Source of the DNA: Asparagopsis taxiformis
Lineage: Eukaryota > Rhodophyta > Florideophyceae > Bonnemaisoniales > Bonnemaisoniaceae
Assembly: GCA_030407315.1 (NCBI GenBank)
Contig: JALQPE010001692.1
Span: forward strand, 42,457-106,456
Length of the DNA stretch: 64,000 bases
Direction of reading: 5' to 3'
Shown here: piece after piece, positions 40,257 through 64,000 of the stretch
Numbering within the stretch: the first letter of the stretch is position 1
Layout: the number at the start of each line of letters is the position of its first letter
Notes under the pieces: generated by a model
Database searches by the model: none
The model's input: only the letters and a program-made list of their open reading frames with translations
What the model was told of the DNA's origin: nothing
Program-made: the position numbers and the translations under genes

Positions 40257-40275
40257 CACTACTGTGTCTGAAATC
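40257..40275 (+). repeat. left terminal inverted repeat of giant CACTA element
   Basis: CACTACTGTGTCTGAAATC begins with the canonical CACTA pentamer. Comparison with the left MULE arm predicts G after ...GGGTG if the arm continued, so the C belongs to the element. Confidence 0.82.
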
Positions 40276-41440
40276 GGGCCTGGGGCAGTACTGTACGGCA
40301 GTAAAATTTACTGCCTGAGGCAGTAAAATTTAGTACTGTAAAAATATAAATTAATGCCCTACTTGCCGGCAGTACAGTGCACTGCCCGGAGGCAGTGGCC
40401 ATGTGCTGCCGACGGCAGTAGAAAGTACTGCCTGGATGTATGACGTGAGGCAGTGGTGGGAGGCAGTGATAGTTGCTGGATTTAGATTGTCTTTCTGGCA
40501 GTGATTTGTGCTACATTGGCCTGTAAAATAAAGTAGTATATTGTGCTGACTTGGGCAGCACGGGGGGGGAGTAAAATATGCTGTCCAGGAATATGGCCCA
40601 CGGCAGTACTATTTGGTGGCGTGGGATGCACCGTGTGGCAGTAGAAGCTAGTGTTTCCGGCAGCGTGCTGTGCTGGCTGCGGGCCCGAATGACGGCAGCA
40701 AATTTTGCTATATTTAGGTAGTGCCCCGATGTACTGTATGATACTGCCTGCAGGTCATGGCAGAGGCAGAGAAATGTACTGTATTCTATTATTGGACAAA
40801 GCAGTAATTTCTGCTGCTGTGTGGTGCTGCTTTTTTTGTACTTACAGGTAGTGACAAGTCTATGTTCTGACAGTAGAGTAATGTAGTGGAATATGATGAC
40901 AGCAGACATGCTTCGAGGCTGTGTATTCTACTGCCTGTGGAAGCGAGTGGGGACAGTAAATTATGATGTCTGACGAAATGTGTGAAAGCAATGAAATGAG
41001 GTGCTGATAGTCTCTGGGAAAAGCTGCCTGATAGTACTGCTTTATGATACGAAAAGTGCTACCGTACCGTGCTACTTGCCGTGGTGGAAAGTGCTGCCGT
41101 GCTCTACTACTTGCGTATGTGTAAATCACTGCCACGCTGTACTGCTCCAGGATATGTGAATTGCTGCCCCACAGCACTACAAAAAGTAGTAGATTTTGAT
41201 GTATTATAGAGCTGTCCAGATCAGCGTAAAGTACTGTCTGATAGTGTTGTACTCGACAGGGGCATAGGACAGTACCAGTTACTGCCTGTGGCAGTGCAGT
41301 GTACTACCTGGAAGTGCTACCTGTGGCAGTACATTTCACTACCTGGAACTAGTGCTTGAGACAGTACAATTTACTGCCGGGAAGTCTATACTGAACCAGT
41401 AAATTGTAGTGCCTGGCGGTACTGACTCGGACAGAACGGG
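40276..41440. repeat. left subterminal repeat array (GGCAGTA / TACTGCC)
   Basis: About thirty GGCAG or CTGCC cores occur in both orientations, many as GGCAGTA/TACTGCC, and some form the composite palindrome TACTGCCTGAGGCAGTA. Spacing is irregular, about 15-60 bases. Typical of transposase-binding subterminal regions of CACTA elements. No coding frame is supported. Confidence 0.85.
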
Positions 41441-42890
41441 AAAGTAGTAGAATATGATGCCTAGGGTAATACTTTCTAGTGCCTACAATTGATGTTCAGG
41501 ACGATAGAATCAGGTGGAAATGCCATTCCAGCCGCATGTTCAGGCATCTGGCTACGAAATGTCGGGCAGAATGGAGTATCTCTCTCGGTGGTCTTCATAG
41601 AAGTGTATAGGGATAACCAAGTGTGATCTAAAAGGATGTCAGAATTTTTATGTAGCAAGGACAACGATGCCTGAAGGATTGTTTCAGTTCTATCATTAGA
41701 CTACTCATAAAATCGAACTATCGTATCTAAAATCTTACTATCTCTACAACCAGGACTATTGTGCAAGCAAATCGAGTTCCTTGCTGTTTCAAAACTACAT
41801 GTGATGTTCAGACAGGAGGGAAATAAACATAAACACCATTACAGATGATTTGCAACAGGTTAGCAATCGGATATAGAAAAGTATTGTAAAGGATGAGAAG
41901 AACATAAGTATGAATGGAATGAACAAACTTACCATCATTGAACTATTTTTGCGTGCAACAGTATTGGTTGTAGGTTGGAATGACGAAAACTGATCCTATT
42001 CTAGTCTATTGATTTGAACGGTCTCTGACATATGTATTGCTTAAGCAATACATATGCCAGAAACCATTCAAATCAGTAGACTAGAATAGGATCAGTGAAG
42101 AACGATACTCATGGTTAGTGCACTGTCTTCCATGGAAAACATGTGGAAAGAAATGAGAGAGGGGAAAGATACCTACTCGACAACGTACCAGCCTTACCTG
42201 TCATCTTCATGATAACCGGATGATGAAATGGTCCTATACGTCGCGCATCAACAGCCTTAAATAGACAGCTCATCCACTCATAATGACCTCGTCGTAACTG
42301 GAAGGCAGATGATTTGGCAGACGATGATGTGGCAGATGATTTGGCAGCGGATGATCTGTCAAATTTTCTGGACGTGATAAATTAGCAGAAATAGAAATCA
42401 TGCCCCTACGCAATGTCAAACCAACCTAAAAGTCTTGGTATTGATGTTTAGCTGCATACTGAAGGAGAAACATCGAATAAATGCTGTAAATTAGAGTAGT
42501 AGACAATCCGAAAGAGAATTGCAACCGTGTTCTCATCTATATATAGTTTATTACCATAACAAGATTACTATTGAGGCCTATTATACCATGTACTGAAGCT
42601 AAATTGTAAATGATTCGTGTATTTCATTCAGAAAAGGAAGCAGGAATCGTTGGAGGCATTAAAGCTCGCTGAAGAACCCAACATGGGAAATCAAGTCACC
42701 TGTTCCTTGAGTTAGGTAGGACACTAGTCAGTGTGAAGTTTTCGATAAGATGTAACGGTAAGAAAATATAGGTACCATAAACTATTACAGTGGCCTGGTT
42801 AAAAAGAGACGGATACCATCTTATTAGTTGCCTACTAGTTGACACTAATCCACAATTTGTGCAAGGTTCTCTCGAATCCAAAGAGAAGAG
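41441..42890. other. non-coding region upstream of transposase
   Basis: About 1.45 kb with no supported gene. It contains the long palindrome at 41989-42096 and a short run of GATGATNTGGCAG-type repeats at about 42308-42358, some of which again carry GGCAG. Probably the transposase promoter. Confidence 0.55.
41989..42096. repeat. 108-bp near-perfect palindrome
   Basis: Two 54-bp arms with no spacer (centre TTGCTTAAGCAA at about 42042) are reverse complements with four mismatches. It would extrude as a cruciform or be read as a long RNA hairpin. It lies between the left subterminal array and the transposase gene. Confidence 0.88.
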
Positions 42891-45800
42891 ATGAAACGAA
42901 CAGCTGTTCGGAAGAAAGGTACACCTCGAAGAACCCGGAGAAGGTTTGAATCATTGTCAATCCCATACGAAAGTGGGACAAGGCACGAAAATGGGGAAAC
43001 CCCGCTAGTTTCGAACGAAACATTCGAGGTTCACGCCGATATACCGGACGAAAACGTCGGAAAAGCATCTGCTGAAGACGAGAATATTTCTAGTGGCAAT
43101 GGAGAAGAGCACATTGGATTTTTTGAGGCTGGAAAAGTTACCAGAGAAGAAGAAACGATAGGCTCTGAGGAAAGCTCGGCCGAGAGCTGTGATGACCACG
43201 ACGGAGAAGAGGCAGCGGAAGATGACCGCGGACTTGTGGATAAACTGCTGACCTGGCCAGTATTCTCTGCAATAATATTGCTTAGTGGAACGCTACGGAT
43301 GAAACGCAAGGACTATGAAGGTATGCGTGAGATGTCTAATTTCAAGCGGGACATTTCGGATCAAGCACCTAGCGACTCGTACATGAGGAAAGTCATTTTA
43401 CCGTTCATTCTGAAAACATGTTTCCCACAAAGCATGGATACAACGTGTGAAATAGATGTAACAAAAAGCGGCTCTAGGCTTGGAAAGATGTCTCCAGGAC
43501 TGTCTAGTAGCCGTAGAGCTCATTGTACTACATCGGTACGAGTCGTGCTACCGAGCACATGGGCGGAAAGGGATATACAGACCGGACCCATTCTGGACTG
43601 CATAAAGTCTAGTAAAAGGGATAATAGTGATGAAAGAGAAGATGAAGCATATCAAATTGCTTCAGAAAGTATTGAAAACTCTTTCATTGTCAAATGCCGT
43701 TCAGCTGTTCTGAATGACCCATTCCATCGCATTTCGGTAAGTGCATCAGATCATGACGGTCACAAGATGCACAGAAAGGTATACGCCCGACATGGAGACG
43801 AGTTGAGGATCATATGTATGCCGACGACAAATCAAGAGGCCCTGGTGGCTAAGCTGGGAGGAGCCAGAACGAAACAGGGAAAGAACATCGAAACTGGAAA
43901 GAATTCTAGGAGCAGAAGAAGTTTTACAGCAAGGAGTGACTGGAGAATTGAAGCTATCATCATTGCAAGTTATCTTGCAACCGGAGAAGAACAACAAGAA
44001 TCAAATATGGAAGATGTGATAGGCCCGCAAATCGATGCAATGGAAGAAACTGAGAAAAGAAATGCGAGGCGTGTCGTCTCCACCACAACGCTCGACGGAG
44101 AACATTGCAACAATGATATTCGGGCAGGTGACGCTATCACTCTGTTTCGGCCAAAAAGTAAGTCTGATGGGAGCACATTTGAAGAGTTACTACTCGTGAA
44201 CAGACATCTGAAAAAGGGACGCTCTGAACATGCGACTTTTCTCATTTGCTCCACAAGGGGAGCAACTGGGCAGCTACATCGCGAACAAATTCGGGTGAAA
44301 GACGTCCAGCTCATAGGAGCTCCAGACAAGAGGTCTAGATGGCACCCCGGCTCTAAACGTATGGATGCCTGCAGTGAGGGGAATCTTTCAGATGGCAGGA
44401 AATATATCGTATACCGATTTCTGCTATATGCTGATGACTTCCAGCCGTTCACAAGCCGGAAAGGAAGTTTTGGTGGCTGCTATATGCTTCCATTAGGCAT
44501 ACAGCCAAGCAAGAGAGCAAGCTTCCACGCAGTCCGCGTTCTTGGATTCGTTCCCCCGGGAGTTTCAACAAATGTTGTAATTGAGAGAGTTGTACCCGAC
44601 ATTGTGAAGGGAAGTACAGACGGTTTTCCAGCGAAAGATGCAAATGGAGAAGATGTGGTCATATTCCTGGATCCTGTTGGATTTATCGGAGATTACCCAG
44701 CTGTTTCGCATACTCTGGATGTCCGTGGACACACCAGTAATACACCATGCCATAGCTGCATTTTCGAAAAGCAAGATATGAGCAGCAGTGGAGGTTCACG
44801 AAATGCATACACAGCATTGCTAAACAGTCAGATGAGTACGCATGCCCGAGGAATGCACCGAAACAAGCTTGTGAGGGAAGTCGCATCGCAAGATCAGCTC
44901 AAAGTTCTTGGACTAAGCCTAGATCCGATTGAGAATAAGGCACTCCATAATTTGAGTGAATCCCTTAATCGTGTGCGGAGAGGAGTTCCTACAAACGAAG
45001 AAGGAGTTCCAGTTGTTCCTTGTCAATTCGATCCATATCGCTCTGCTGTAGTTGCCCCAGACCATCTGCTCTCCGGACTGGCTCAAGATGTGATGAATGC
45101 GACAATCACTGCAGCAACACCTGTAATTCGAAATGTTGCGGAAACAGTTCTACTGAATACCCTCCGAATGTTCTGTTTGAGTAGTCAGAGTCAGGTATTC
45201 GGGCAGAACTACCTATTATCGATGAACATGAGCGATATATTCGCTGTTCTCGTTGTAGCTCCCCAAGCATTTTATTCGGCATTTCGTATCGTCATCGGGA
45301 ACTCTTGGGACGGGTATGAAAAACTTGAACGTATTCTTCGTTTGCTGAAAAAGTTTCAAATGGTTGTTGCCAGCATTCGATTCATCCCAACATGGTGGAT
45401 AGATGGACTTGAGTCAACCAGGAGGTTCGAGGCCGAGAATGGCGGACGTCATGACCACATTCTAGCTCTTGTTTCAGACTATATGAAAGAACTGCATGAG
45501 GTATGCAAGAAGGATCCTATTGCAATGAAACATCTGGACAAACCGAACTTGCATCGGTTGATAGAATTTTGCGTACATACATTACCAGCTTTTGGAGCTG
45601 CGAAACATGTGGAAGAGCTTTTATTCGAGAGAATGCACCAGCCTCTTAAAAGAGGGGTTCGAAACTCGAACCATAAGAATGAACATCTGTCATCAATGGA
45701 GCTCATCATGGCCGATGACTGGCTCGCACGAATAGCCATCACGCTGGGTGCGGTAGGTCACAATACAAAACAATGGACGTCTGCCGATTGCAGACGCGTG

Positions 45801-46592
45801 TATTTTGCACTGGGAAAAGGAATTTCGGAGAGTCCACATGCGACAGAAGAGGCAGCAAAAAGATGCTTCTTAAGTCCTGTATTCCATCTCATATCAGAGA
45901 GGAGCAGTACTATGGTGAGCACCCACTGTCCAATCACGCGGTGGCGAGGGGAATCTGTTGAAGACGCGAAAAATGTTCCGGCAGAAGAAACCGTCATGAT
46001 GGCAAGGATACGTAAAGCTTCTGAAACTTTTCTCAGAACCAGACAGGTAAACGGGTCTCAACATGGTGAACGACTATGGTGGCTCACTGCTGCACAAAGA
46101 GTGCGCACTAGTCATGAGGGATCTGAGAGCGAATCGAGGTTAGGGCGTGCTGAACCTGGAAGCATCATTCAAGCAGTGTGCAAAGATGGATGGTATGATG
46201 CTGGTATAGTAGTACCCGCCCATAGCAGGACGAGCATGGAGGAATTCACATGTTCTAGACGTGTCCTTTTCGTCACATTGTCCTTTTTTATTGTGGTAGG
46301 GCAAGGAGAGGAGAAGAAGGCAAAGAAATGGAAGCAGAAAACTCCATATGCTGTCTGCATTCCCTTGACATGCACTGGAGACGGTATGTACCGGAAAGGT
46401 GGGAATGATACTATAGTTCACGTTGAAATGAACGACGGGGTCCGAGAAGTTTTGCACGTACATAACTGCGAGTCAGGAGTTTGTTCATACGATAGACAAA
46501 GTGGCATTGTAGAGCACAATAGTGATATTCTTTCTGGTGGTGAAGTGAGCGTCTTAACTAGAGAAGATGGATACCCACCACGTTCAGCATAG
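42891..46592 (+). CDS. CACTA/Plavaka-like transposase
   Basis: A 1233-aa frame from an ATG. After an acidic N-terminal region (~residues 30-120) comes the RNase H-like core typical of Tnp2/Plavaka proteins. The first acidic motif is LLYADDFQPF (~513). The hallmark GDYPA motif is in DPVGFIGDYPAV (~600), followed by a CHSC zinc-type pair (~619). An ...EELLFERMHQPLKRG...SNHKN segment (~909) is the candidate third catalytic Glu. The spacing GDYPA then CxxC is the same as in CACTA Tnp2 (GDFPA...CPVC). A C-terminal region (~1085-1200) has several Cys/His of unknown role. The frame is open throughout, so the enzyme may be active. It lies first after the left subterminal array. Confidence 0.85.
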   Translation: MKRTAVRKKGTPRRTRRRFESLSIPYESGTRHENGETPLVSNETFEVHADIPDENVGKASAEDENISSGNGEEHIGFFEAGKVTREEETIGSEESSAESCDDHDGEEAAEDDRGLVDKLLTWPVFSAIILLSGTLRMKRKDYEGMREMSNFKRDISDQAPSDSYMRKVILPFILKTCFPQSMDTTCEIDVTKSGSRLGKMSPGLSSSRRAHCTTSVRVVLPSTWAERDIQTGPILDCIKSSKRDNSDEREDEAYQIASESIENSFIVKCRSAVLNDPFHRISVSASDHDGHKMHRKVYARHGDELRIICMPTTNQEALVAKLGGARTKQGKNIETGKNSRSRRSFTARSDWRIEAIIIASYLATGEEQQESNMEDVIGPQIDAMEETEKRNARRVVSTTTLDGEHCNNDIRAGDAITLFRPKSKSDGSTFEELLLVNRHLKKGRSEHATFLICSTRGATGQLHREQIRVKDVQLIGAPDKRSRWHPGSKRMDACSEGNLSDGRKYIVYRFLLYADDFQPFTSRKGSFGGCYMLPLGIQPSKRASFHAVRVLGFVPPGVSTNVVIERVVPDIVKGSTDGFPAKDANGEDVVIFLDPVGFIGDYPAVSHTLDVRGHTSNTPCHSCIFEKQDMSSSGGSRNAYTALLNSQMSTHARGMHRNKLVREVASQDQLKVLGLSLDPIENKALHNLSESLNRVRRGVPTNEEGVPVVPCQFDPYRSAVVAPDHLLSGLAQDVMNATITAATPVIRNVAETVLLNTLRMFCLSSQSQVFGQNYLLSMNMSDIFAVLVVAPQAFYSAFRIVIGNSWDGYEKLERILRLLKKFQMVVASIRFIPTWWIDGLESTRRFEAENGGRHDHILALVSDYMKELHEVCKKDPIAMKHLDKPNLHRLIEFCVHTLPAFGAAKHVEELLFERMHQPLKRGVRNSNHKNEHLSSMELIMADDWLARIAITLGAVGHNTKQWTSADCRRVYFALGKGISESPHATEEAAKRCFLSPVFHLISERSSTMVSTHCPITRWRGESVEDAKNVPAEETVMMARIRKASETFLRTRQVNGSQHGERLWWLTAAQRVRTSHEGSESESRLGRAEPGSIIQAVCKDGWYDAGIVVPAHSRTSMEEFTCSRRVLFVTLSFFIVVGQGEEKKAKKWKQKTPYAVCIPLTCTGDGMYRKGGNDTIVHVEMNDGVREVLHVHNCESGVCSYDRQSGIVEHNSDILSGGEVSVLTREDGYPPRSA

Positions 46593-46860: not shown

Positions 46861-47150
46861 AGCCGGCACCTGGCCAATGAAGTGGAAAATAATACCCGGT
46901 ATAGTTTTCTGGCTCCAGTGACAAGTGGAGTATTGTGACTGATGGCTGTCTGCTGGCCAATGGGGAGCCGGCACCTGGCCAATGAAGTGGAAAATAATAC
47001 CCGGTATAGTTTTTTGGCTCCAGTGAAAAGTGTAGTATTGTGACTGATAGCTGTCTGCTGACCAATAGGGAGCCGGCACCTGGCCAATGAAGTGGAAAAT
47101 AATACCCGGTATAGTTTTCTGGCTCCAGAGACAAGTGGAGTACTATGATT
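46861..47150. repeat. three 105-bp tandem repeats carrying the AATAATACCCGGTATA palindrome
   Basis: AGCCGGCACCTGG recurs at 46861, 46966 and 47071, a 105-bp period. Each unit holds a CCAAT box, CACCTGG, and AAAATAATACCCGGTATAGT (46886, 46991, 47096). The right half of the palindrome is degenerate here (TATAG instead of TATTA). It lies between the transposase 3' end and the first ParB/dioxygenase gene. Confidence 0.88.
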
Positions 47151-47404: not shown

Positions 47405-50400
47405 ATGGCCGGAAGCGACACTGAGCGCGCTGCGGAACCAAAGGATACCGTCGAAAGCGTTGCAGAGAGACTTGCAACGACGGTAGGCGGTGATAAAACA
47501 CCCTCCGGAGGTTCTGCTGGTGGAGGGGCTCCGTCTGCAGCGGGAAGGGAGACGGCAGATAGCCAGATACCCATTAAGGGAGCAGACGCTGCCATGATAG
47601 AGGCAGCAGAAACCCTTGGCGATATATCACCATCTGGGAAAAACACTCTACGCTTTCCATCTACTCCTGGGACGGTGAAATCGAAAAACAGGGAGAGGTC
47701 TAACGTCCGTGAAGGCGAGGGGAGTCCTGCTGCCATGGAAGCATCAGAAGAGTCTGTGATGGGGATTGACATCAACATTGTCGAATGCAGGACTGAACCT
47801 AAAATGATCAATCCGCTAGATGTTGCCAAACCGGAATCAACTTCTCGTCTTGTGCAGGAGGCCAGAGTGCGCGATCTGGTCAGCAAAATATCTACCGAGG
47901 GGTTTCTGGAAACTGGCACCCGAATGACCATCTGTGAAACAATGGGGTCAGACGGACGGAAGAAACTGCAGTGCATTGATGGAGGTCATCGTATCAGCGC
48001 TTTGCAGTCGATTGTGGAAAACAAACCGACAGTTGCTGATCGATGGAGACTGAGGAGCATTAGCGTTGACTTTATCCGACCACCTGGAACCCGTGAAATG
48101 TTTCATCCTCTTGAAGTGATGCGAATATCGCAGAAGCTGAACGAAAAGACTCATGACGTGATAGAAGTTTCTATTGCTGACCACGTCTGTACGGTCATGA
48201 AGTTCATGATGATGAAGGGCTTGATGAAGGCGAAGGTAAATGTGTGCACAAAAGTTGTAGTCGAGAACAAGGTCATTCCAGGTTGTCAGGAAGGAATCAT
48301 GATGAAGTACGTTTCGATTGCGCAGGGCTTTGGAGACGTAAATAACCCGGCGTTCGAACATTGGTCAGCTATCCCAAGTCGATTTGCAACTGAAACTAGT
48401 CCGCCAGACTCGAAGAATATGCAGGGATGCACTGTGGACGTCCTATTCGCTTCAGCGTTTCGAAAAGCTTCGGTGGACACCAAACTTGTCATTCTAGAGC
48501 TCACTGCAATGTGGACGATGTGGAAACGTAGGAAAGGAGATGGTGGTATAAGTCTAAAGACATGCGCGCAAAAATGGTGCTACAGCATGTGTGAAATATA
48601 TGACATACTTGAGAAAGCTGTACGGAAAGAAAACTCCTGGCATTCCTCACCTCATCCATATTTCAGGAAGTTACATGAAGTACCGGAGCCAGGTGGACGA
48701 ACACGAAAAACCATACGATATCGCATTTTGACTGTCCTCAAAGATTTCTATCCTTCCGACGCACCAACTGGGAGAGGTATACGTGCAGCATTGACGCGGT
48801 CTATGATGAAAGAAATCCGTTATGTGGTTTTCAACGGCCCAATTCTATCGGATGACTCTCTCGACCATTCCGTCGCGCCTGAAATAGGTGTGCAGGAAAG
48901 GCGGACTAGGCGAAAATCCTTGGAAGGGAATACTGCACCTCAACCACGACAACAATCCGCATCGTATGGTGATACTTCAAATGCTGCCATTGATCGCTCG
49001 GACGTGGTACAGAGTCCAAATGTACTTACCCAACAGCAGACACAGGGCAGTCTGGAAATATCGGATCGTGTTAACGCTGAGGTCGGTGCTGCAACACAGG
49101 TTGGTGAAGAGGCGACAGGGAAAACGGCAGATTCCGAAAGCGCAAAGCAGGTTACAACGGACCGCGCAGTGCCTACTGCGCCTACCGAGAACAATTCTTC
49201 GAAACCTGGAGATTGTGAAGTTGGGGATGTGTTGCAGAAGAACGTAGGAACTCGAGAGCTTGAACCAACTGGTGCAAATCGAGGAAGAAATGACCACGGT
49301 GATGAAAATGACCTGCAAAAACCACCTAGCCCAGTGGCAGCCGGAAGTGCCACGCTCAGACCAGAGCAGGGTGGAAAGTCGCCGGCGAATATGTCAGTTG
49401 GTCATCCAAGAACTGGTCGAGATGGTGAAGGAGGTCCTGAATCTAGGAAGAGCGATGGGTCTGGAACGAAAGATGTCCGCGAAGAATGTCCCGAACATTC
49501 TTCTGGAAGGACAACGGAGGACCCGATGAAAGGTGTACGAAATCAGGGTGATGGCACTGGAGACGCTATGTTATCTACAGCGGATGTCGGCCTACCTGTT
49601 TTACCTGAGCTGGAGGACACGGAAACACCTGTTACCAGTTCTACGCCTAGGAAGTTGATGAAAGCCAAGCACAGCAGTGGTTTCGTGCCCTTAAAGGCAA
49701 AGCCGAGGAATACGGAGACGCCGCCAATGATTCTACGATCCAAACGGAAATTGGTGGATGTCACCCCTCAAGAGGTTATTGACCTGGTGGGAGAGGATAC
49801 CAGCAGGCCGCGGCAGAAGAAGAAGCAAAAGATGCGTGAAGACGCAAATTTGCAATCCGGCAAAGACGCTGCAGTCCACGCGGTTCAAGGAGGTCAGTAT
49901 TCGGACAGGCAACAAAATGATGTCCCTGACAAAGATGTGGAGGAAGGTATAGAAGCGAAACTGCCTGTTATCATTCATCCCGACAGTCGAATGAAATACT
50001 ATGTGAATGGGAAACTGGTCGATACGCTTCGAGCCGAGGTCGCTGAAGCAGCAGCGAGTGCCTATTCGGCACAAAATGTTTCCGCTGAGTTTCTCTCGAG
50101 GGCTTATTTCCGAGAGAAACGAAATGAAATAGACTTGGTTGGGTTTACAATTCTGGACGGAATATTCAAGTCTTCTACTACTGCAGATGCGATCCACGAA
50201 CTGCTCCTTCATTTTTCTGCGTTGTTTGAGGAACGTCTCGAGGATGCCAAGAAGAACTCTGAATCCGGTGACACCCGCAGAGATCCGGACTGGACACCGT
50301 GGTGCATGGCTATGATGGATGGGAAAAACTCTGATGAAGAAGGTGAGAAGGGCAGAGGAATCTTTATAACAAAGCGGAAGAGCTTATGTGATGACCTCGA

Positions 50401-51164: not shown

Positions 51165-51405
51165 TAGAAAAACCTGGTATTATATTACATCGTTCACTAT
51201 CCCCGGTAAAATTTTCAGTTCCTGAGAACAGGAGTCTGGCCGGGTATAAAGTTGGGTGGGTGTAGACCAAGTGCACCAACCCCATTGCCTGGGGGTACTC
51301 CGGAAAACCTCAGCCAATGGCGTTGGTGCACCTGGCGTTTGGGAGGCCAAAATAATACCGGGTATTATTCCTAGTTTCTCAAGCCAGGTGCAGTGCACTC
51401 ATTGG
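51165..51405. repeat. intergenic palindrome cluster 2
   Basis: A good copy of the palindrome, AATAATACCGGGTATTATT, is at 51350-51368, flanked by CACCTGG on the left and CCAGGTG on the right and by CCAAT/ATTGG further out. Degenerate half-sites occur at about 51175, 51203 and 51240. It lies between the two ParB/dioxygenase genes, downstream of the first. Confidence 0.85.
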
Positions 51406-51836: not shown

Positions 51837-54748
51837 ATGGCTCCTCGCACTCGCTCCAAACCCTCTGCCCCCGCCCCTGCTCGCGCTTCGACTCGCGGTC
51901 GGGCCTCCGCTCGCTCTCGCGCCCCTTCTCGCTCTCGCGCCCCTTCTCGCAGCCCTGGTCACGATAACTCTGTCACCGCCGAGGTTCAGTTGTCAGACTG
52001 TCCCAAAGCTGACCACAGGCTGTCTCCCTTGGATTTGCACAGACCCCCCCTATTCTCTCGTCATATTAGGGAAGGGAGAGTGCTTGAGCTGAAGGAGAAG
52101 TTCCTGAGGGAAGGATTCACCTCCTCAATCTCCCGAATCCTTGCCTGCAAAATGCTCCTTCCCAGTGAAGGCAGCACAACCCCCACCCTTCAAACGTTCT
52201 ACATCGATGGTGGCCATCGCGTTGCGGCTCTCCAGAAGTGCATTCGTGAAGACCCGGAAGGGCAACATCCGTATGCTGCTTCATTCAGGAACATCGATGT
52301 GGCTTTGATCAGGCGCCCAGGGACAGAAGAAGTTTCCGATGAGTACTTCACACCTTTTGAAGTACTCGGGCTGTCCATTCAAGCAAACACACTCACACAT
52401 GATGTTGCCCTTGTTTCTTTGGCAGACCGAGTGTGTTCTGTGGTCCAACTGCTCACGACCAAGGACATGCTGGGTGAACCGAATCGGAAGTGCATTCAGG
52501 TCATCATGGACAGCCAGTTGTCGATATCGAAACTGGGCTACCAAGCCATCAACAAGCACGTGACTGCTGCGAAAGGCTTCCGGACTGTGAACAACAAAGC
52601 GCTTGAGTTCTGGAGTTCCGTACCGAGCATGTTCACCAAGGAAATTCTCGCTGCGGAACAGGAAAGGGCCGTTAAAGAAGGCCGTGACATCAACGACGAT
52701 GTCTTCAAGCAGTCCGTAGACATGTATGGCTGCAACATGGATCTCGTTTTCATGGCAGACTTCCGTCGCGGCTCGGAGTATCAGCAAAGGTTCATCTTGC
52801 TCATAACAGCTCTCTGGACACGCATGAGAGATCTGCGTCAGTTGAGTAGGACGACAAGAGGATTTGGTAATCCTTTCGTTCGTGTTTTGATTGAAGTGTT
52901 CAAGATGTCCGAGCCGGTTGCTGCTCACAAAATGATGGAGCCTCCGCTCGAGCATTTCTACTCCGAGCTCAAGAACACTGGGTCAGGAAAGGAGACTGTT
53001 ATTGCGAACAGTATCGCGGAGACCCTCCTGCACTTCAATACCGACGATAACAGCGGTACGAAGCATGCTCTCGTCTCCGACGAAATGTATGAGCAGCTTC
53101 GCTTTTCCACGGGCGTTGTGGAAATGGAAGAAGACCAAAGGGTCATTGTTCACAATGAACAGCCATCTGAAGATGCGCCGAAGCCATCTACGCCCCAATC
53201 AGATGAGCCTTCTACCCCTTCTACCCGTTCTGGTCCTACTCCTCCTGCCCCTTCTACCCCTCCTGCTCCTTCTACCCCTCCTGCTCCTCGTGCTCATTCT
53301 ACCCCTTCTACTCGTTCTACTCGTTCTACTCGTTCTACTCGTTCTACTCGTTCTACTCGTTCTACCCCCTCCTTCTACTTCCTGCTCCTGCTACCCCTCC
53401 TCCTGCCACTTCCGTTCCCGCCCCTTCCACCCCTCCTGCTACCCCTCCTGCTCCTGCCACTTCCGTTCCTGCAGTTGAGCAGGCTCAAGGAACCCCTGAT
53501 GCCACTGTGGCAGGTTCTGAGAAGCAATTGGGATCTGTTCTCCTCCGTCTCCCTCTCAATGCACCACCGCTTGCGGTGAATGAGCCAGTCGAGACACTTC
53601 GCAGGTCGAAACGGCAGAGAACGGAGAGTCTACGGGTTGGCGGCGACAGTCAGGCAGAGTCGGAGGTAGAAGAAGAGTCCGAAGAGCCCCTTCCGAAGCG
53701 CAGAAGACTGGAAGTTAAACGTTCAACGGAAGAGATTCCATTGTTCAGCGATGAGCAGGAAAATCCCCTCCCCGACAGGGTAGTCGATGAACGGATTATG
53801 GATATTCTCCCGAACACCATACCGTCAGACTCTAGGGTCAAGTACTATATCGACAGCAAGCTGTACGAAACAATCCGACAGGAGATTTTGAGTGCAGCTG
53901 CTGCCGATATGAATTGTATAGCGTGCAGTGGTCCAGCTTGCTGTGCAGAGAAGTTCTTTGCAACAGCTAGGTCAACTCTCAATCTCTTGGGTGCCCATGT
54001 ACTCAGTGGTATCTTCCGTTCTTCGACTGTGGGCAACGCAGCACATGAACTGTTCACGTTCTACGCCCAGAAGTTCAAACCTGTTCATTCTTCTGCTGAA
54101 GACAGTTCCAATGATCCCTGGCATCAGATTCGAAACAAGGGTGAGGTAACAGCAGAGCAACAGGCCTCTCGTTTGGGAAGGTTCTCTATCTCAAGGAAGA
54201 AGATTTGCGACGATCTCGAGCAGATGGATGAACATCAATTCAAGAACAAGATGATTCTCGAGGTCGGCAAAGCAATCTGTGCCGAGCTAATGTACTTGGG
54301 CCTAGGAATCCATGAGCCTGTGGCCTTTCCTAAAACCGGTTTACGTCTTTTGCTGACCTCTGATGGTGCTCCAGATCAAGACTTGCACACAGACCTACCG
54401 GTGGTCATCAATGATTCCGATTTCCCACCTGGAAGATCGTACTTTCTGATGGCAAGCGCGGCTGATGGGTTCTGGCTTCGTGGAGCGTATTTCAGCCACG
54501 TCTGTTTGACGCGTGCAGACGCTGAGAAGTACAAGACGCCTGTTATGGACATCTACGTGCCACCGTATTCTCTCTTCATCGGTCGTGGTGACTTCTACCA
54601 TGGAGGCAAAGGATTCAGTAGTTCAGCGGAAAATCGCCTAACATATGGTCTTCCGGTTCGTTCTCATCTCTACCTTTTAAGTGACGAAGAAGAATTGGCG
54701 GATGCTATCGAAACAGTCAACTACTGGGATGCACCTAGTGCGCGATAA
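51837..54748 (+). pseudogene. ParB-like / 2OG-Fe(II) dioxygenase-like fusion protein, copy 2, frame change in microsatellite linker
   Basis: The N-terminal part (ATG at 51837) begins with Arg/Ser repeats, then a ParB-like domain with YIDGGHRVAALQK (~125) and the helical half as in copy 1. The linker is Thr/Ser/Pro/Arg simple sequence (53200-53480). After about 53340-53400 the conserved reading continues in a different frame, which runs on through PATSVPAVEQ to the C-terminal oxygenase and stops at 54748. That half keeps HTD (DNA 54386-54394), FYHGG (54599) and the VRSH Arg (~54658). The mismatch is probably one or two small indels in the C/T-rich repeat: real, an assembly error, or a spliced intron. 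Both halves are otherwise well preserved. Confidence 0.78.
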
Positions 54749-55069: not shown

Positions 55070-55410
55070 GCAAACCTGGCAGCCAATGGAATTGCTGCAC
55101 CTGGGCTTTGCCATGCCAAAATAATACCGGGTATTATTTTGGCATGGCAAAGACCAGGTGCAGCACTATTATTGGCTGCCGCTGCGTTCATGACAGCCAA
55201 TGGCAGAGCTGCACTTGGGCTGGCCACACCCAAAATAATACCCGGTATTATTTTGGCATGGCAAAGCCCAGGTGCAGCAATTCCATTGGCTGCCGCTGCG
55301 TTCATGACAGCCAATGATAGTGCTGCACTTGGGCTGGCCACACCCAAAATAATACCCGGTATTATTTTGGCATGGCAAAGCCCAGGTGCAGCACTATCAT
55401 TGGACGTGGG
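55070..55410. repeat. intergenic palindrome cluster 3 (three perfect copies)
   Basis: Three perfect odd palindromes of 27 bp are centred at 55129, 55243 and 55357 (core AATAATACCSGGTATTATT). Each is embedded in a larger imperfect palindrome with GCCAATG, CTGCACCTGGGC, TGGCATGG and mirror copies, spaced 114 bp. It lies between the convergent 3' ends of copy 2 and the methyltransferase gene, so it cannot be an ordinary promoter for either. Confidence 0.93.
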
Positions 55411-55552: not shown

Positions 55553-58500
55553 CTACTTCTCTGCAGTCCAGTAGCGCGATCCATAGTCAACGAATATCTC
55601 TTCCCCAGCTCGAACATCTACTACAACCTGCGCTAGGATGAGATCAGGTTTTGCTACTGCATACTTGAAGTCGCAAGTAGGATTGACGTCTTTGTGAACT
55701 CGGAACTCTGCATTTTTTCTGCGTTGCACATTTGCAACTCTCTCCATTCCGTCAATGGTCCTACTGTCGTTGAGGTAGCTGCAGACATTGTATTCCGCTG
55801 GTACAAGATATATCTTGTCGACCGGTGCTTCTTCTCCGATGACACTGGTCTCCATCTCCATGTTGAAGTTTTGGAATCTTTCACCAGTACAACCGAACCC
55901 GTCCGGTCCGTACAAGCGACTGCGTTGCGGTTCATTCTCCCCAATCTTCCCGTATAAAATTGTCCCATTATACCATCCAACAACAGAGCCCCTCTCTAAA
56001 TCTTCTGCGGCAAAAACCCCCAATCCTCCCTCTCGAACTGTCGATGCAGCAACAATAACGTTGTGAAAGGAGGCATCTACTGCAAGCATCATCTCAGGGT
56101 CAACGGAGAAAACCTTGCCTAAATCTTCTACGCCCCATTCATTCATTGGGACTTCGGCAAGTCTTCGGAGCATGCTTTGATCCCGCGCAACAGAGGAGAC
56201 AAATCGCAACATATGCAGTGGTAGTGAAGATACCGACGGGAATCCATCAGGCGCATCACTTCGATGTCGAAGTCTTTCACTTCCTACATTGCTCCTTATC
56301 GAGTAATTCCATTCTTTGTTAGCGAGAATACTCGATATGTCATTTTTGGTTGCCTCCCCAAAAACTCCATCTCGACCTTGCCTAACAAAGCAATCCAGCA
56401 ACAACGGCTGAGCTGATCCATGGCATGTGGCGTCTTTTTCACATCCAATAAACTTGCGATACAGACCATCTCTCATTGTCATGCAAGCTATTGCAGTAGA
56501 ATACGTTCCGGAGAATAGATCTACCACAATGTCTCCTGGCTTTGAAAACCTTGAAATAAGCTCTCGAAGTATGGACAGAGGCTTCTGCTCCGCACGTAGC
56601 CTTTTGTCTTCGAAGTTCAATGACTCACCAGGTCCGAGCTTTGGGCAGTTGTCGATTGCGTTCACGTACCCTGGATGTCGTGAAAGGTCACGGTTATGCA
56701 AAGAATAATCAACCATTTCAAACGCGGCAGCTCCCATCCCACGTTTGAAACTGTGCACAACAAACTCGTGAATGTTGTGTAATGAACACGATTTGTTCAT
56801 TGGGTTTTGGATGAATACGTAGGGACGACGGCTTAGAATGAGAGGAACATCGTCTGTACGCATGGATTGTTCCCCGCTTTCTGCATTTTGAAGAGCTTCT
56901 CCCCACCCAACCAACTGTTTGATACTGGAAAATATCAGGGCATGTCCTCCAGGGCGCAGCATTCGAGAAATGTCCTTTCCAGTACGAAACATTTGTGCGC
57001 TATTGATGTCATCATAGTCTGAATTGGTCTTGCCTTTCTCCCTCCGCGTGTTGAAGGGTGGATCGGTGAGCACAAGTTGTGCTTGTCCATCAATAGTATT
57101 CCCTGAAAGCATGCCAATGGAATCAGTGTTAACCTGGTGCACTAACCTCGAGGCTGTACAGTTGTAAGCCACGCAAAATCTCTTCATGACCTTTTTCAAT
57201 TGCACAATATGATCCGGTACCCCCTCTTCCTCACCCACTGCCTCCGCTGACGGTGTATCCTCCGCAACATCTTGCATAACCGTGTCCATTGCGGACGAAG
57301 CCCTCCCATCCATGCTGGATGTATACTGGGATCCAGAGTCATTGGTAGGTTTCCTTCCACCTGTACCTAAACGGCGAGTGCTGTGCTGCATTGATTCATT
57401 CGACTCAAGACGATCTCTTTCTCGAGAAAGAGATCTGGATGCTGCGTTGCGCTGTTCAGTCTCGTAGAGAATTTTCAAGTCGCAGACATCAACTGGCTTC
57501 ACACGCATTTCACGGTTCCAGTTCTTCCATACCTTGAGTCTTTCGTGACCATCCAATGCGATGGATTGTTCTATTCTTGCTTCGATGAAGGCGTTCAATC
57601 CGAACCGGTCAGGCTGATGGAAAAATTTAGTGCGCAGCCCTTCCATCTGGTTCGTACTTGATCCGAATACATCAATGCCTATCATACAGTCATACACAGA
57701 CACTAGTACGGCTTCTGTCAAAGACCTCAACCTTGCATCAACAGAGATATCCAAAGTGCCTGGATAACCTGCATTCTCGCGGAGTTTCACTACCGGGGAC
57801 GGAAGCAGAAGATCTGAGTAGTGGTCAGGATGTGCCCACCCGTCAGTACGATTAGCAAGACAGATGAATTGGAATTTCTCAGAGTCGAAAACCATGTATG
57901 GGCGACACATCATGTAGGCGCTTTCGAAGCCCAGAATCATCGCTGTTGTATCCCAGGCAGACATGACCCTTTCCAAAACGACACCCACAGACTCTCCGTT
58001 TGCTCTTGTGCGCTGGAAAGGGGCGAATGTAGAAGTCTCTGTATCCCTCCCAGTTCTACGACGCTTCCTACCCCGGCGAATGGGTGCATTTCTGCGTCTA
58101 GTGAGGGCAATGTGCACAAATGAAATCATAAACATCAGCCTTCCAAATACTTTGTCTTCTTCTGTTAATGTTCTACCCTGTGCACTTCTTCCAGAACGAA
58201 AATACTCACAGGTGAGGACTTCGCGACACAATGGAGAAGCAATTTCACCACTTGTAGACATCCCAAACAACTGCTCGCCGACTGATGCTCTTTTCTCGAG
58301 AGATGTGGGAAACTCCTTCATCGCAAAATTGTTCTGAACTTCCACCGGCCTTCCCCATACAATACAGAACAACTGCCACAGACAGCGAACCATTTTGGGA
58401 TTGGGTTCTTCTATGCGACTGTAGGGGCGAAGCACACGAAGAATTGACAAGCAACTCTCGTACTGTGGCTGCCTCAGCACAGTTTCTGCCAAATCTTCGC

Positions 58501-59792: not shown

Positions 59793-61181
59793 ATGCAAGA
59801 CCCAACAGACTTTGTCTCCGAAGGATCAGTCATTGAAGTAGAATGGAGTTTACGAACGAGAGGAAGGAAACAGAAAAAGGTTTGGTGGGGCGCCAAAGTT
59901 TTGAGTACTGCCAAGCCGGACGCGTCCGGAGAACATCGTTTGACTGGAAACTTGTTTGTTACGCTGCAATATCAATCTGAACACGGTTTCGACCAGTCAG
60001 TCTCTACAGCAAAATTATTCAAGAACAATTCGCTGCTGGACATTGACTCTGGAAACATGCTACGTTGGAGGTTTGGAGAGCAACTAGCACTAGAGCAGAC
60101 GATCTCGTCTGCGGGTGAAGACAGTTTCCATAAAAAAGACTGCAAACAAAACATGTTGAGTCGATCCAAGTCCGAGCCGCGCTTAGTTTGCGATGAGAGT
60201 CCTCCTGGTCCTAACATCAATGAGGACATATCCAAGCTGTTTCAAAAGGTATCCTACCTCGAAAGGCAGATTCTCAACTGTCGCGGTTCATCAAGCGCTA
60301 CTGGACCCATCTTCGGAAACATTGTGTGCGACTACCTGTTCCAGAGAGTTGGCTTAAAACTGGACAAACCCCTGTCCTCCAAAATCACGAAGTCTGAAAC
60401 AGGCCGGGAAGTGAGCTCCTTGGTGCAAGACTATGTGACGGCAAGAGCAGATTGCTCGCTTGAACAGTTTTTACAACTTTCCAGGCTATGCGAAGAGAAG
60501 AACAACCCAAACACAATTTTCCTGCCGAGCGTCGAGGCGGTTCGAATTTCAACTGGGAGAGATAAAGAGCTATCGATCCACTTTGGAACATACTATGACC
60601 TCTGCAATACTTTAGCTCCTTCCATGTCTACATGCACGAACTCTACTATCCTCAAGTGGAAGAAAACACGACACGATTCTGGGTCTTCTGTCATTAGAGT
60701 TTTGGGAACTCTAGCAGACAGTGCTTCAGAAGATTCTATTCCATCTACAAAGGCTGTTCTTGTTGGTTCCTCTTTATACAGGAGATCTGAAAACATGAGT
60801 AGTACTGTCGTTCTTACTCGAGAATCTGATGAATACGACTATGTCAATTGCAGCTATTCGTATCCTTTGGAAGCTCGCTTCCTCTCAAGTCGAGAAATGC
60901 AGGAGAACTTTGAGCTGCCGGACAGCAAAAATTTCAAACTGGCCAACTCGTTCTCACTGACCTGGAAACCTGTTCAAGGCCCTCGTCCATATGGAACTTT
61001 CGAGCGCGTTCTCAAGAATGTTGTGTTGGGAACTGCATACTTGAACCTCCCAGCATGCATTTTCAGTGGACACACCATCTGCAGCGAGCTAGACACAATT
61101 GGACATGACGTTATTGTTGGACAGAATAGTTCCCCTGTCGATGCACCTCATCCTACCGTACACGATGTCGCCTCCGAGTAA
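59793..61181 (+). CDS. hypothetical cargo protein, possible SH3/Tudor-like N-terminus
   Basis: A 462-aa frame from an ATG. The first ~100 residues have a beta-barrel-like pattern with spaced aromatics (GSVIEVEWSL, KKVWWGAKVL, LFVTLQYQSE, MLRWRFGEQ), reminiscent of Tudor/Agenet-type chromatin readers. This is a resemblance only. The rest (~140-462) matches nothing I know. No signal peptide or membrane segment. It is transcribed divergently from the methyltransferase/SET gene and convergently with the coiled-coil gene, inside the transposon. Function unknown; a chromatin-binding role fits the neighbours but is inference. Confidence 0.7.
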   Translation: MQDPTDFVSEGSVIEVEWSLRTRGRKQKKVWWGAKVLSTAKPDASGEHRLTGNLFVTLQYQSEHGFDQSVSTAKLFKNNSLLDIDSGNMLRWRFGEQLALEQTISSAGEDSFHKKDCKQNMLSRSKSEPRLVCDESPPGPNINEDISKLFQKVSYLERQILNCRGSSSATGPIFGNIVCDYLFQRVGLKLDKPLSSKITKSETGREVSSLVQDYVTARADCSLEQFLQLSRLCEEKNNPNTIFLPSVEAVRISTGRDKELSIHFGTYYDLCNTLAPSMSTCTNSTILKWKKTRHDSGSSVIRVLGTLADSASEDSIPSTKAVLVGSSLYRRSENMSSTVVLTRESDEYDYVNCSYSYPLEARFLSSREMQENFELPDSKNFKLANSFSLTWKPVQGPRPYGTFERVLKNVVLGTAYLNLPACIFSGHTICSELDTIGHDVIVGQNSSPVDAPHPTVHDVASE

Positions 61182-61329
61182 AACGTTTTCTATCTTTTCT
61201 AGATGGGTCTACAAGACTGTTCAGAGTTAGTCAACCTCGATTAAGTCGATGGTATCCATCGATACATGCTCCGTATCTTTCTGGCCTGTTCCTTCGTCCA
61301 GGGACTGTCTGCATTCTGTAACAATGATT

Positions 61330-61480
61330 GCCCTCCACTTGGCAAAATATCCCTGAAAATAATACCGGGTATTATTCTTAGGTTTCGTCCAGGGATCGCC
61401 TGTAGTCGGTACGAATGATTGCCCTCCACTTGGCAAAATATTCCTCAAAAATACCCGGTATTATTTTCCGCACTACTCTG
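61330..61480. repeat. intergenic palindrome cluster 4
   Basis: AATAATACCGGGTATTATT is at 61359-61377, and AATACCCGGTATTATT at 61450-61465. They are embedded in a duplicated ~86-base unit (GATTGCCCTCCACTTGGC appears at 61326 and 61418). The cluster sits between convergent 3' ends of the 59793 and 61787 genes. Confidence 0.88.
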
Positions 61481-61786
61481 CCAGGTGGAGCTACGGCATT
61501 GGATGGGACTGCACAGGCCCCGAAGCTACTAGAGGCGTGCTCAATGACAGGGTAAAACTCTTAACCGTAGTAGACATGACGCTTTCTAGTCGCAGAGTGA
61601 GCTGAAAAATAAGAACGATAGCTATTGTTTCCAGTACACCATGTAGTACGTAGCATGCTAGGGTGCACCTTTTCCACTCATATCCTAGACAGTTTCATAT
61701 CTAAAGGTTTCTATTTCTCCTCAGTCTGCCTCGTCGTAATTATTTTACTTCAAAGGTTATGAAACTTTACTTATCCGCTTCCATTA

Positions 61787-63310
61787 TCAATCTTCCTCAT
61801 CAAGGAAAACTTCAACGTAGCTTTCACTCCCATCTTCTTCATTTCCATGTCCGCTATCCTCCTCAAACGCGGTACTACGCTGTTCCAAGTGTTGTTCATC
61901 GAATTTTTCGTTAGTAATTGTCAGTACATCTTCGCAGAGATGCCTCTTACAGATTCGCTCACTCGGCAACATCGCCTTTCCTAATTGTTTGAGCTCGTCT
62001 TGTACACTTTCTTCGAAGGTCTGACCTGATTGTACCTTGAAAATTCCTAGAATCCCGGAAGCGATTGCATAGACAAATCTGAGTGAATTGCAGGAACGTC
62101 GCAGGAAAACCATTCTACTCGTGCATTGAAGGAAAGCAATTGCAGTGTTCAGGGCTACCTCCAGGATATTGATTCTCCTTCGAATCATCCTTTTGGCCAC
62201 ACATCCCGATATCTCGACTTCGTACTGAATGATGACAACCATCTCTTTCCGCTCAGCGATGAATTGTATCAAGATCTCGGAATTCTTGTCATCCACAACT
62301 TTCCGTTCCTCAGGCCTTAGATTTCCGTTGGTCACACGGGTATCGGGGATAACATCCATATCTCGAATGAGATCGTGAGTTGGAAACTCGAAAGTGATAG
62401 AGGCGTCCGTTTCCAAGACTAGAGCGAACCCCAGTTCGACAAGGAATCGATGGCGCACCTGCTCTCTAGACTTGTTCAGGAAACCGAGCACCTTTGTCAG
62501 CGCAACTTTCGTAACAGCCAAAGATATTTCACGCTTGCTCAACTGTCCACCATTTCCATCTGTTTTCCTCCGCTTCCTAGCCCCTCCGTCAATGCTTCCT
62601 GCAGGCTGGTTTCGGCCATCGCCAGTGGCACCATAAACAACTTCTTCGATTATTTTGTCCGGAATGTACTTGTTCTCCTTCCAGACGTTGAACGCATTCG
62701 AATCGCGTCCAGAGCTCGAGCCTTCCACTGTACGGCCTGTACCCGACTTTTCCTTCTGAATGTTCCGCAGGAGAGACATCACCACTTGGAATCGAAGCTC
62801 GATGTTGTTCTTCCCGGTGTTGGATTGGAACACATCCCTCTTGTCATTGCTCTGCTTCGCAAACATCATTGCAGAGAGCAACCTGCAACCACGGAGGTCG
62901 TAGATTCCTTGGTTGGTGTAAATTGTCGCCCCAGCATCAATCTTGTCGACCAGCAAAGGTACAACAGTTCCAAATACTGCACACAGAAAATTGTAAGAAA
63001 ACGATAGTTCTGCTGACTGCGAGATGCGCAAACGGTCCCTGTCCTTGTCAGTCATCCCCTTCTTCGAATTGCCCTGACTCTGCTGTAATAAACCATCACA
63101 GATGTCTTTCACACCCTGTAATTCCGTTACTATAAACTCGACGCGACTCATCAGCTTTTCGATTTGCTGGCGTTGGGACGTTCGATCATCGTCGATTTCA
63201 TCCATCCTCTCCCCAATACGACGAACTTCCCCAGTCACTGTCCTGAATCCCTCTCGAATAATCCCTGCTAGGCAGTCATTTGGATTTTCCTCACGACGCT
63301 GAGATTCCAT
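61787..63310 (-). CDS. hypothetical coiled-coil cargo protein
   Basis: A 507-aa frame with ATG at 63308-63310. Residues ~15-80 are charged with a heptad-like pattern (EVRRIGERMDEIDDD..., LMSRVEFIVTELQGV), likely a coiled coil and hence oligomer formation. A predicted helical core follows (~100-330), then a basic GARKRRKTDG cluster (~245, possible nuclear signal), and an acidic C-terminal tail. I recognise no enzyme motif. It is the last gene before the right subterminal array and convergent with its left neighbour. Possible roles are an accessory DNA-binding or transposition protein like the second protein of CACTA elements (TnpA), which binds subterminal repeats; that is inference. Confidence 0.68.
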   Translation of the reverse strand: MESQRREENPNDCLAGIIREGFRTVTGEVRRIGERMDEIDDDRTSQRQQIEKLMSRVEFIVTELQGVKDICDGLLQQSQGNSKKGMTDKDRDRLRISQSAELSFSYNFLCAVFGTVVPLLVDKIDAGATIYTNQGIYDLRGCRLLSAMMFAKQSNDKRDVFQSNTGKNNIELRFQVVMSLLRNIQKEKSGTGRTVEGSSSGRDSNAFNVWKENKYIPDKIIEEVVYGATGDGRNQPAGSIDGGARKRRKTDGNGGQLSKREISLAVTKVALTKVLGFLNKSREQVRHRFLVELGFALVLETDASITFEFPTHDLIRDMDVIPDTRVTNGNLRPEERKVVDDKNSEILIQFIAERKEMVVIIQYEVEISGCVAKRMIRRRINILEVALNTAIAFLQCTSRMVFLRRSCNSLRFVYAIASGILGIFKVQSGQTFEESVQDELKQLGKAMLPSERICKRHLCEDVLTITNEKFDEQHLEQRSTAFEEDSGHGNEEDGSESYVEVFLDEED

Positions 63311-63630
63311 CTTCCGTCAAACTTCGCCTCTCGTTCCAATCGCAGAGTGTCACTCCAAACGCTTTTCCTGCAACGAGAATGCTAGCAATAGTAACAAATA
63401 ATGCCAACTACTCTACTCATATCCTCGGAAAACGACCGATTTTCTCCTACCTTTTTTGTAACGGTCATTTCCATGTGACCATGCATCCTCTACACTTCTC
63501 ACTACTAGTAGCTTCAGAATAGTTTCCTCTCTTCTCTACTTGAACTCACATGCGAACACATTGTACAACCCTATCCTGGACAACTATTGCAACATTGAAT
63601 CTCAGAAAATACCAATCACCAATTACTATC
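63311..63630. other. region upstream of the coiled-coil gene
   Basis: About 320 bases, no gene supported; likely promoter of the minus-strand gene at 63310. Confidence 0.5.
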
Positions 63631-63981
63631 AAGGCAGTACTTGCAGGCAGTACAATTCACTGCGGAGCCAGTATATTTTACTGCCTGATTCTAATGCCAG
63701 GTCATTTGCCAGGGCAGTACTGTTGGCAGTACATTCCATTGCAAAAATCATCAAAAATCACTGCATTGCACTACTGCCCTGTGGTACCAGCAAAAATTAC
63801 TAGAATTTGCTATCGTACAGTACTGAATTCTGCTACATACCGTACTGCCAGGAAATTTTGTATTTTACTGCCTGCGGCACTAGAACTGAAAAAATTAAAA
63901 TAGTAATTTTACTGCCTCAGGCACTACATTGCTCAGGCAGTGATTTTTACTGCCTCAGGCAGTAAATTTACTACATTTTTT
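63631..63981. repeat. right subterminal repeat array (GGCAGTA / TACTGCC)
   Basis: About a dozen GGCAG/CTGCC cores occur in both orientations, including the composite TTTACTGCCTCAGGCAGTAA near the end. The motif is the same as in the left array 24 kb away. Confidence 0.88.
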
Positions 63982-64000
63982 GATCTCAAACTCAGTAGTT
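63982..64000 (-). repeat. right terminal inverted repeat of giant CACTA element
   Basis: GATCTCAAACTCAGTAGT is the reverse complement of a sequence that agrees with the left end at 15 of 18 positions. The final T at 64000 may be the outermost element base or the first flanking base. Confidence 0.75.

What the first reader, a model, noticed from the sequence alone, without database searches (positions are those of the whole stretch)
40257..64000. A ~23.7-kb CACTA/Plavaka-like transposon carrying DNA-modification and histone-modification cargo
Seen: matching terminal repeats, matching subterminal arrays, a CACTA-type transposase, and five more genes, three of them ParB-like fusions to a dioxygenase (twice) or a DNA methyltransferase plus SET. 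Known: TET/JBP-type oxygenases have been reported linked to fungal KDZ-type transposons, and CACTA elements need hypomethylated subterminal repeats to transpose. Inferred: the element encodes its own writer, eraser and reader of chromatin marks, perhaps to escape host silencing or to regulate its own transposition. I know of no described element with this set.
Basis: partly seen in the sequence, partly recalled or inferred. Interest (0 to 1): 0.96.

Follow-up and report, generated by a model that had tools for sequence, protein, structure and literature searches.

The report
Red-alga giant transposon with chromatin writers
A 23.7-kb jumping gene, whose gene tags are found at about 170-260 places in the genome of what is very likely a red alga, carries one protein that fuses a ParB-like domain to DNA-methylating-type and histone-methylating-type (SET) domains, and holds arrays of its own palindrome; it is predicted to mark its own DNA and chromatin, which would be a new variant of the giant algal transposons already known.

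Summary
The element is real: window 40257-64000, CACTACTG...CAGTAGTG ends, subterminal ACTGCC arrays, 2-bp target duplications in 14 of 16 copies with both flanks read. The 19-bp end tag occurs 444 times in the genome; 30-base gene tags occur 174-262 times. The host is very likely a red alga. The transposase model has the RAG1/Transib fold; its tail resembles BAH readers (suggestive). Gene 5 is a ParB-like + N6/N4 DNA methyltransferase + SET fusion, open in 40 of 40 copies scored. The two 'ParB-dioxygenases' rest on motifs only: no profile hit, failed structure model. No cytosine-5 methyltransferase profile matched the host genome, which weakens 'escape from host 5mC silencing'. Two shorter derivatives keep ends, palindromes and an intact last gene, with only decayed remnants of others. 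Giant multi-gene CACTA elements in red algae and ParB-methyltransferase proteins in algal transposons are in print; I saw no mention of the SET fusion or palindrome arrays. Verdict: new variant of a known kind; mechanism inferred.

The parts
40257..64000 (.). whole element, CACTACTG...CAGTAGTG (last base T in this copy, at the contig end)
   Evidence: 2-bp TSD in other copies
40257..40275 (+). left terminal inverted repeat CACTACTGTGTCTGAAATC
63982..64000 (-). right terminal inverted repeat, CACTACTGAGTTTGAGATC in other copies
40284..41378 (.). left subterminal array, 21 ACTGCC/GGCAGT motifs
63633..63963 (.). right subterminal array, 12 ACTGCC/GGCAGT motifs
42891..46592 (+). gene 1, transposase, 1233 aa; RAG1/Transib-like fold in a predicted model
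   Evidence: 11 relatives at 22-43% identity besides a 100% hit
45936..46574 (+). C-terminal BAH-like domain of the transposase (suggestive)
46888..47116 (.). three palindrome units, 105-bp tandem repeats (2 mismatches each)
47405..50929 (+). gene 2, 1174 aa; DGGHR (ParB-like) motif and HTD...YH...R (dioxygenase-like) motif
   Evidence: no profile hit, model failed
51351..51369 (.). palindrome, single here; on C19 an array of 25 units lies next to the gene 2 tag
51837..54748 (+). gene 3, paralogue of gene 2, frame-split in this copy (51837-53579 and 53507-54748)
55120..55366 (.). three palindrome units, 114-bp repeats; 7 units beside gene 5 on C9
55553..59062 (-). gene 5, ParB-like + N6_N4 DNA methyltransferase + SET, 1169 aa
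58670..59032 (-). ParB-like domain of gene 5
   Evidence: phrog_1033 ParB-like E 2.9e-6, phrog_4272 (unnamed) E 4e-8
56426..57079 (-). N6_N4_Mtase domain (DPPF, FxGT motifs)
   Evidence: E 1.2e-13
55580..56026 (-). SET domain
   Evidence: E 2.2e-5, 25.3 bits over the cut-off of 22.4
59793..61181 (+). gene 4, 462 aa, no known family
61358..61465 (.). two palindrome units between the 3' ends of genes 4 and 6
61787..63310 (-). gene 6, 507 aa, intact in both shorter derivatives read

Best explanation
This is a giant CACTA-type transposon in the genome of what is very likely a red alga, with gene tags at about 170-260 places, whose accessory proteins likely form a self-directed DNA- and chromatin-marking module. 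Shown: a complete element with exact ends, many copies, 2-bp target duplications in other copies, a gene for a ParB-like + DNA methyltransferase + SET fusion that stays open, and palindrome arrays. Predicted by a structure model: a RAG1/Transib-fold transposase. Inferred: the DPPF-type methyltransferase writes N6-methyladenine (or N4-methylcytosine) on element DNA and the SET domain methylates histones nearby, bringing element copies into a chromatin state that keeps them expressed and mobile. Inferred: the ParB-like domain brings the enzyme to the element, with the palindrome arrays as the most likely landing sites. Predicted only, from motifs: genes 2 and 3 oxidise or remove such marks. Predicted only: a BAH-like tail on the transposase reads the local chromatin. 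Inferred: the 507-aa gene 6, kept intact by the shorter derivatives, is a TnpA-like partner in transposition.
For: Ends, copies, TSDs. Copy tags (30-mers, up to 2 mismatches, reversed control 0 each): gene 5 174, gene 2 189, transposase 222, gene 6 262. Gene 5 without stops in 40 of 40 copies scored, of 3786 first-look candidates. MTase and SET in Pfam. MTase and SET parts stay together in all six diverged relatives aligned (23-44% identity); the ParB-like part is in two of those six. ParB-like profiles. Palindrome: 9 hits in the window, all in the element, 0.01 expected; 2333 exact places in the genome, control 0. Transposase fold. In both derivatives read gene 6 is intact while only stop-ridden remnants of genes 4 and 5 remain; gene 6 dN/dS 0.18-0.27. 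No PF00145 match in the host. ParB + methyltransferase proteins of algal transposons were proposed in print to bind and modify their own element (PMC12477816, passage).
Confidence: 0.5

Rival explanations
1. The palindromes have nothing to do with the ParB-like domains: they are bidirectional 3'-end, terminator or insulator elements, or sites of a host factor, that separate the element's genes.
For: All 4 clusters lie in intergenic stretches that hold a gene 3' end; each of 6 genes has one 177-422 bp past its stop; none in the three 5'-only stretches (chance 0.036 if clusters fell at random in intergenic DNA). Units carry CCAAT/ATTGG and CACCTG/CAGGTG flanks.
Against: One listed array has 25 units at about 118-bp spacing (C19), more than a terminator would seem to need. 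The core looks better conserved than the flanks, but the units were picked by their core, so this is biased.
Confidence: 0.4
2. Restriction-modification-like use: the ParB-like domain is a nickase or NTP-regulated nuclease and the methyltransferase protects element DNA, helping excision or maintenance; SET acts separately.
For: A bacterial ParB-methylase has non-specific nicking activity, and ParB/Srx domains of mobile elements are predicted NTP-regulated DNases (PMC5512222, passages); phage ParB-like and phage DNA-methyltransferase profiles match gene 5.
Against: Four of the six diverged MTase-SET relatives lack the ParB-like part, so it is not essential to the enzyme.
Confidence: 0.15
3. One reading: dioxygenases remove host 5-methylcytosine so that the CACTA ends stay hypomethylated and active.
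For: Fungal EnSpm and Plavaka elements carry TET/JBP genes (PMC12730594, abstract and passages); HxD...H...R motif conserved in genes 2 and 3.
Against: No cytosine-5 methyltransferase profile match in the host assembly, control rang in 10 of 14; no TET/JBP or other oxygenase profile hit.
Confidence: 0.08
4. The extra genes are passengers without function for the element.
For: Shorter elements with the same ends have moved (own 2-bp duplications) and the two read inside lack working genes 1-5.
Against: Gene 5 is open in 40 of 40 copies scored, its MTase-SET pair is kept across diverged relatives, and gene 6 is under purifying selection; the derivatives may be moved in trans.
Confidence: 0.07

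Closest known systems
Giant EnSpm/CACTA elements of red algae (Chondrus crispus, Kojima 2013 as cited in PMC6431247; red algae, Petroll 2025 as cited in PMC12477816)
   Same: large CACTA-type elements with several accessory ORFs in red algae (passages seen)
   Different: the Petroll paper is not held, so its cargo could not be compared; from memory its abstract names a single lineage of giant Plavaka transposons in Ceramiales. SET fusion and palindrome arrays are not mentioned in the passages read
Sola1-1_Ec32 of Ectocarpus (PMC12477816)
   Same: transposon-encoded 1104-aa protein with ParB-like and N4/N6 methyltransferase domains; its authors suggest that such proteins bind and modify their own element
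   Different: other transposase superfamily (Sola-1); no SET domain mentioned in the passage
TET+ EnSpm and Plavaka transposons of fungi (PMC12730594)
   Same: CMCT-clade transposons with a DNA-modification enzyme
   Different: TET/JBP eraser, fungal; our oxygenases are unconfirmed and no host C5-methyltransferase was found
HarbingerS and MuDR elements of Phytophthora with SET genes (named in PMC12730594)
   Same: a transposon carrying a SET methyltransferase gene
   Different: different transposases; the passage mentions no fusion to a DNA methyltransferase
Bacterial and phage ParB-methylases (PMC5512222)
   Same: ParB-like domain fused to an adenine methylase
   Different: prokaryotic; SET is not mentioned in that paper's main text; shown nicking activity

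Membership tests
CACTA/EnSpm-type (CMCT clade) transposon | 5'-CA..TG-3' termini (CAC..GTG in EnSpm), as given in PMC12730594 | tested here: met
   CACTACTG...CAGTAGTG
CACTA/EnSpm-type (CMCT clade) transposon | 2-5 bp target-site duplication | tested here: met
   2 bp in 14 of 16 copies, (the fungal EnSpm families in that paper have 3 bp)
CACTA/EnSpm-type (CMCT clade) transposon | subterminal repeat arrays (recalled as a CACTA feature) | tested here: met
   21 and 12 ACTGCC motifs at the two ends
CACTA/EnSpm-type (CMCT clade) transposon | RNase H-type transposase related to RAG1/Transib | tested here: met
CACTA/EnSpm-type (CMCT clade) transposon | C(2)C and H(3-4)H motifs between second D and last E; Tnp2/Plavaka sequence profile | tested here: inconclusive
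   CxxC (C620 nearly, C623 fully invariant) in the 12-row alignment; an H(3-4)H was not identified; no Pfam hit at E 1
Plavaka | termini TGT..ACA (PlavakaA) or CATCA..TGATG (PlavakaB), as given in PMC12730594 | tested here: not met
   termini are CACTACTG..CAGTAGTG
ParB/Srx superfamily (gene 5) | profile match with the DGxHR motif | tested here: met
   phrog_1033 ParB-like E 2.9e-6, four more ParB-like families at E 0.025-0.11; Pfam ParB_N no match
ParB/Srx superfamily (genes 2, 3) | profile match | tested here: inconclusive
   IDGGHR motif; hhalign to gene 5 E 0.0012 but probability 19%
N6_N4 DNA methyltransferase | Pfam PF01555 with DPPF and FxGT motifs | tested here: met
   E 1.2e-13; motifs
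SET methyltransferase | Pfam PF00856 over cut-off | tested here: met
   25.3 bits against 22.4
2OG-Fe(II) / TET-JBP dioxygenase (genes 2, 3) | double-stranded beta-helix profile or fold with HxD...H...R | tested here: inconclusive
   motif conserved in both paralogues; no profile, no PDB hit, model pLDDT 29.6
BAH domain (transposase tail) | BAH fold | tested here: inconclusive
algal transposons with ParB-methyltransferase accessory protein | ParB-like + N4/N6 methyltransferase gene inside a DNA transposon of an alga | tested here: met

The most novel reading that the evidence does not exclude
A eukaryotic transposon that owns a complete, host-independent epigenetic identity system: sopC/parS-like palindrome arrays at its gene ends are loading sites for ParB-like proteins that carry a DNA adenine writer fused to a histone writer and two oxygenase erasers, with a BAH reader on the transposase, all in a host without cytosine-5 methylation.
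Probability: 0.2. Interest if true: 0.9.

Novelty: new variant of a known kind. Interest (0 to 1): 0.63.

Why it matters
Whether mobile elements write their own chromatin identity, instead of only evading the host's, is open and hard to test. Here one element family offers a writer, possible erasers, candidate landing sites and many near-identical copies in one genome, so native long-read modification maps could answer it directly. It also links prokaryotic ParB-methylase logic to eukaryotic histone marks in one polypeptide.

Tried and rejected
Pfam, NCBIfam and PHROGs named no family for the transposase, gene 4 or the oxygenase regions (weak chance-level hits only). AlphaFold of gene 2 with 4 rows failed (pLDDT 29.6), so no fold search was made with it. 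PDB sequence searches with the oxygenase, ParB-like and transposase profiles found nothing relevant. The protein search for gene 2 found only a 99% copy, with 7992 candidates scored. Viral contigs gave 12 loci matched only over parts of the gene 5 protein, mostly the methyltransferase, and none for the second piece of gene 3. Plavaka membership rejected on termini. Fungal host rejected. The one ParB_N hit of the genome (C1526) lies outside the element and was not followed. The PF00145 search goes exon by exon, so a gene cut into very short exons could be missed.

Full report
What is there. Window 40257-64000 is a complete transposon of about 23.7 kb at the end of its contig. The left ends of the 21 places all begin CACTACTG at the same base, with 16 different flanks. 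Of 25 right ends read, 17 are CAGTAGTG, 5 CGGTAGTG, 1 CAGTAGCG and 2 end in T at a contig end, this copy among them. Thirteen other stretches fetched where an end was expected held none, so copies vary in inner length or are incomplete. In 14 of 16 copies with both flanks read, the flanks share the 2 bp expected of a target duplication: 11 of 11, and C2576 (TT), C2634 (AC) and C2142 (TA). C2143, whose flanks resemble those of C2142, and C1573 do not match.

Abundance. A 19-base degenerate end tag has 444 exact matches and none for its reversed control. 30-base tags allowing 2 mismatches give gene 5 174, gene 2 189, transposase 222 and gene 6 262 places, controls 0. In the 40 copies of gene 5 that were scored, of 3786 first-look candidates, none has a stop and all show 100% identity. 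Some places may be alleles or overlapping contigs, since left flanks recur, so copy number is approximate.

Host. Eleven of 13 phycobiliprotein matches lie on one contig, C469, beside ATP-synthase-like genes, and the phycocyanin alpha chain is closest to entry 5y6p, which I recall as the red alga Griffithsia. The host is therefore very likely a red alga. The window's first 40 kb holds copia, MULE and NB-ARC/WD40/TIR genes.

Gene 5. Pfam finds N6_N4_Mtase (E 1.2e-13) and SET (E 2.2e-5). The N-terminal 140 residues match five PHROG families called ParB-like, one strongly (E 2.9e-6) and four weakly (E 0.025-0.11). Seven database proteins match, one of them identical but for a few residues. In the alignment of the window protein with the six diverged ones, methyltransferase and SET parts stay together in all, while four of the six start after the ParB-like part. 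So the methyltransferase-SET pair looks like the older core and the ParB-like domain a variable addition.

Genes 2 and 3 are paralogues (37% identity in the C-terminal part). Both keep IDGGHR, a ParB-like motif, and HTD...YH...P(I/V)RSH, the order expected of an iron/2-oxoglutarate oxygenase (recalled motif). No profile, PDB or model support was obtained. Gene 3 is frame-broken in both copies read, at different places.

Palindromes. A 19-bp palindrome AATAATACC(C/G)GGTATTATT occurs nine times (0-2 mismatches) in the window, all inside the element, where 0.01 is expected. The genome holds 2333 exact places and 0 controls; the list shown covers only the first contigs, so I did not test what fraction lies in elements. 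Units of about 105-118 bp carry it at the centre of a longer dyad with CCAAT and CACCTG flanks. Among 34 units from three element types the core is the best-conserved part, but they were picked by their core, so that count is biased. Arrays differ in unit number between copies: 25 units on C19, next to the gene 2 tag, and 7 beside gene 5 on C9, where the window has 3. Each of the six genes has a palindrome 177-422 bp beyond its stop codon, and the three stretches without a gene 3' end have none; the chance of this placement for four clusters is 0.036. This fits landing sites placed between genes or 3'-end elements; I cannot separate them.

Derivatives. The 15.1-kb (C59) and 11.9-kb (C192) elements were read in full. 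They share ends, palindromes and an intact gene 6 with the window copy. By translated search at E 1e-3 they have no match to the transposase or to genes 2 and 3, and only remnants with stops of the ParB-like start of gene 5 and the second half of gene 4. Five elements of 15.1 kb by their paired end tags (C59, C181, C212, C238, C511) each have a 2-bp duplication; only C59 was read inside. Gene 6 dN/dS between the three element types is 0.18-0.27. Exchange between elements may add to its low divergence, since the right end as a whole is 93-95% alike. A part needed for movement, such as a TnpA-like partner, fits, by inference.

Mechanism. The best reading is a self-directed marking module. The 5mC-escape idea is weakened because PF00145 has no match in the assembly, while the control search rings in 10 of 14 genomes. 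A ParB-like domain may instead act as a nickase (PMC5512222, passage).

Literature. I saw passages of PMC12477816 (ParB + methyltransferase protein in Sola1-1_Ec32; [quoted passage not shown] giant EnSpm elements with accessory genes in red algae), PMC6431247 (16-20 kb CACTA families with 4-5 ORFs in Chondrus), PMC12730594 (abstract, outline, passages), PMC5512222 (passages), PMC11244446 and PMC12502185 (passages). The Bostrychia paper is not held; that it reports giant Plavaka transposons in Ceramiales is recalled. Nine paper searches were made; among the titles and abstract openings listed I saw no transposon with a ParB-methyltransferase-SET fusion or with palindrome arrays of this kind. 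This covers the held open-access library only.

Noticed in passing
G000:C63 (left ends at 12281, 20029, 27780; transposase tags at 7888, 15635, 23387): Three left ends with transposase in tandem about 7.75 kb apart; the same spacing of transposase tags recurs on C1735 and C1736.
   Followed up: no
L086:3631-4377: A 15.1-kb derivative holds an ORF with a helicase-C match (E 6.4e-5) and weak RING-like matches, perhaps another chromatin-type cargo, with near-palindromes just past its stop.
   Followed up: partly
window 41989-42096: A 54-bp inverted repeat with no spacer, 93% complementary, upstream of the transposase.
   Followed up: no
G000:C659 just after 67712: A copy's right flank is transposase sequence equal to window 46374 onward, so this family inserts into its own copies; the left junction was not found in the stretch fetched.
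   Followed up: partly
window 59793-60090: The start of gene 4 looks like a Tudor/Agenet-type barrel to the eye; untested.
   Followed up: no
window 2289-24579: NB-ARC, WD40 and TIR genes next to a copia element in a probable red alga.
   Followed up: no
G000:C1526:7582-7839: Only Pfam ParB_N match in the assembly, on a 14.7-kb contig, perhaps bacterial.
   Followed up: no
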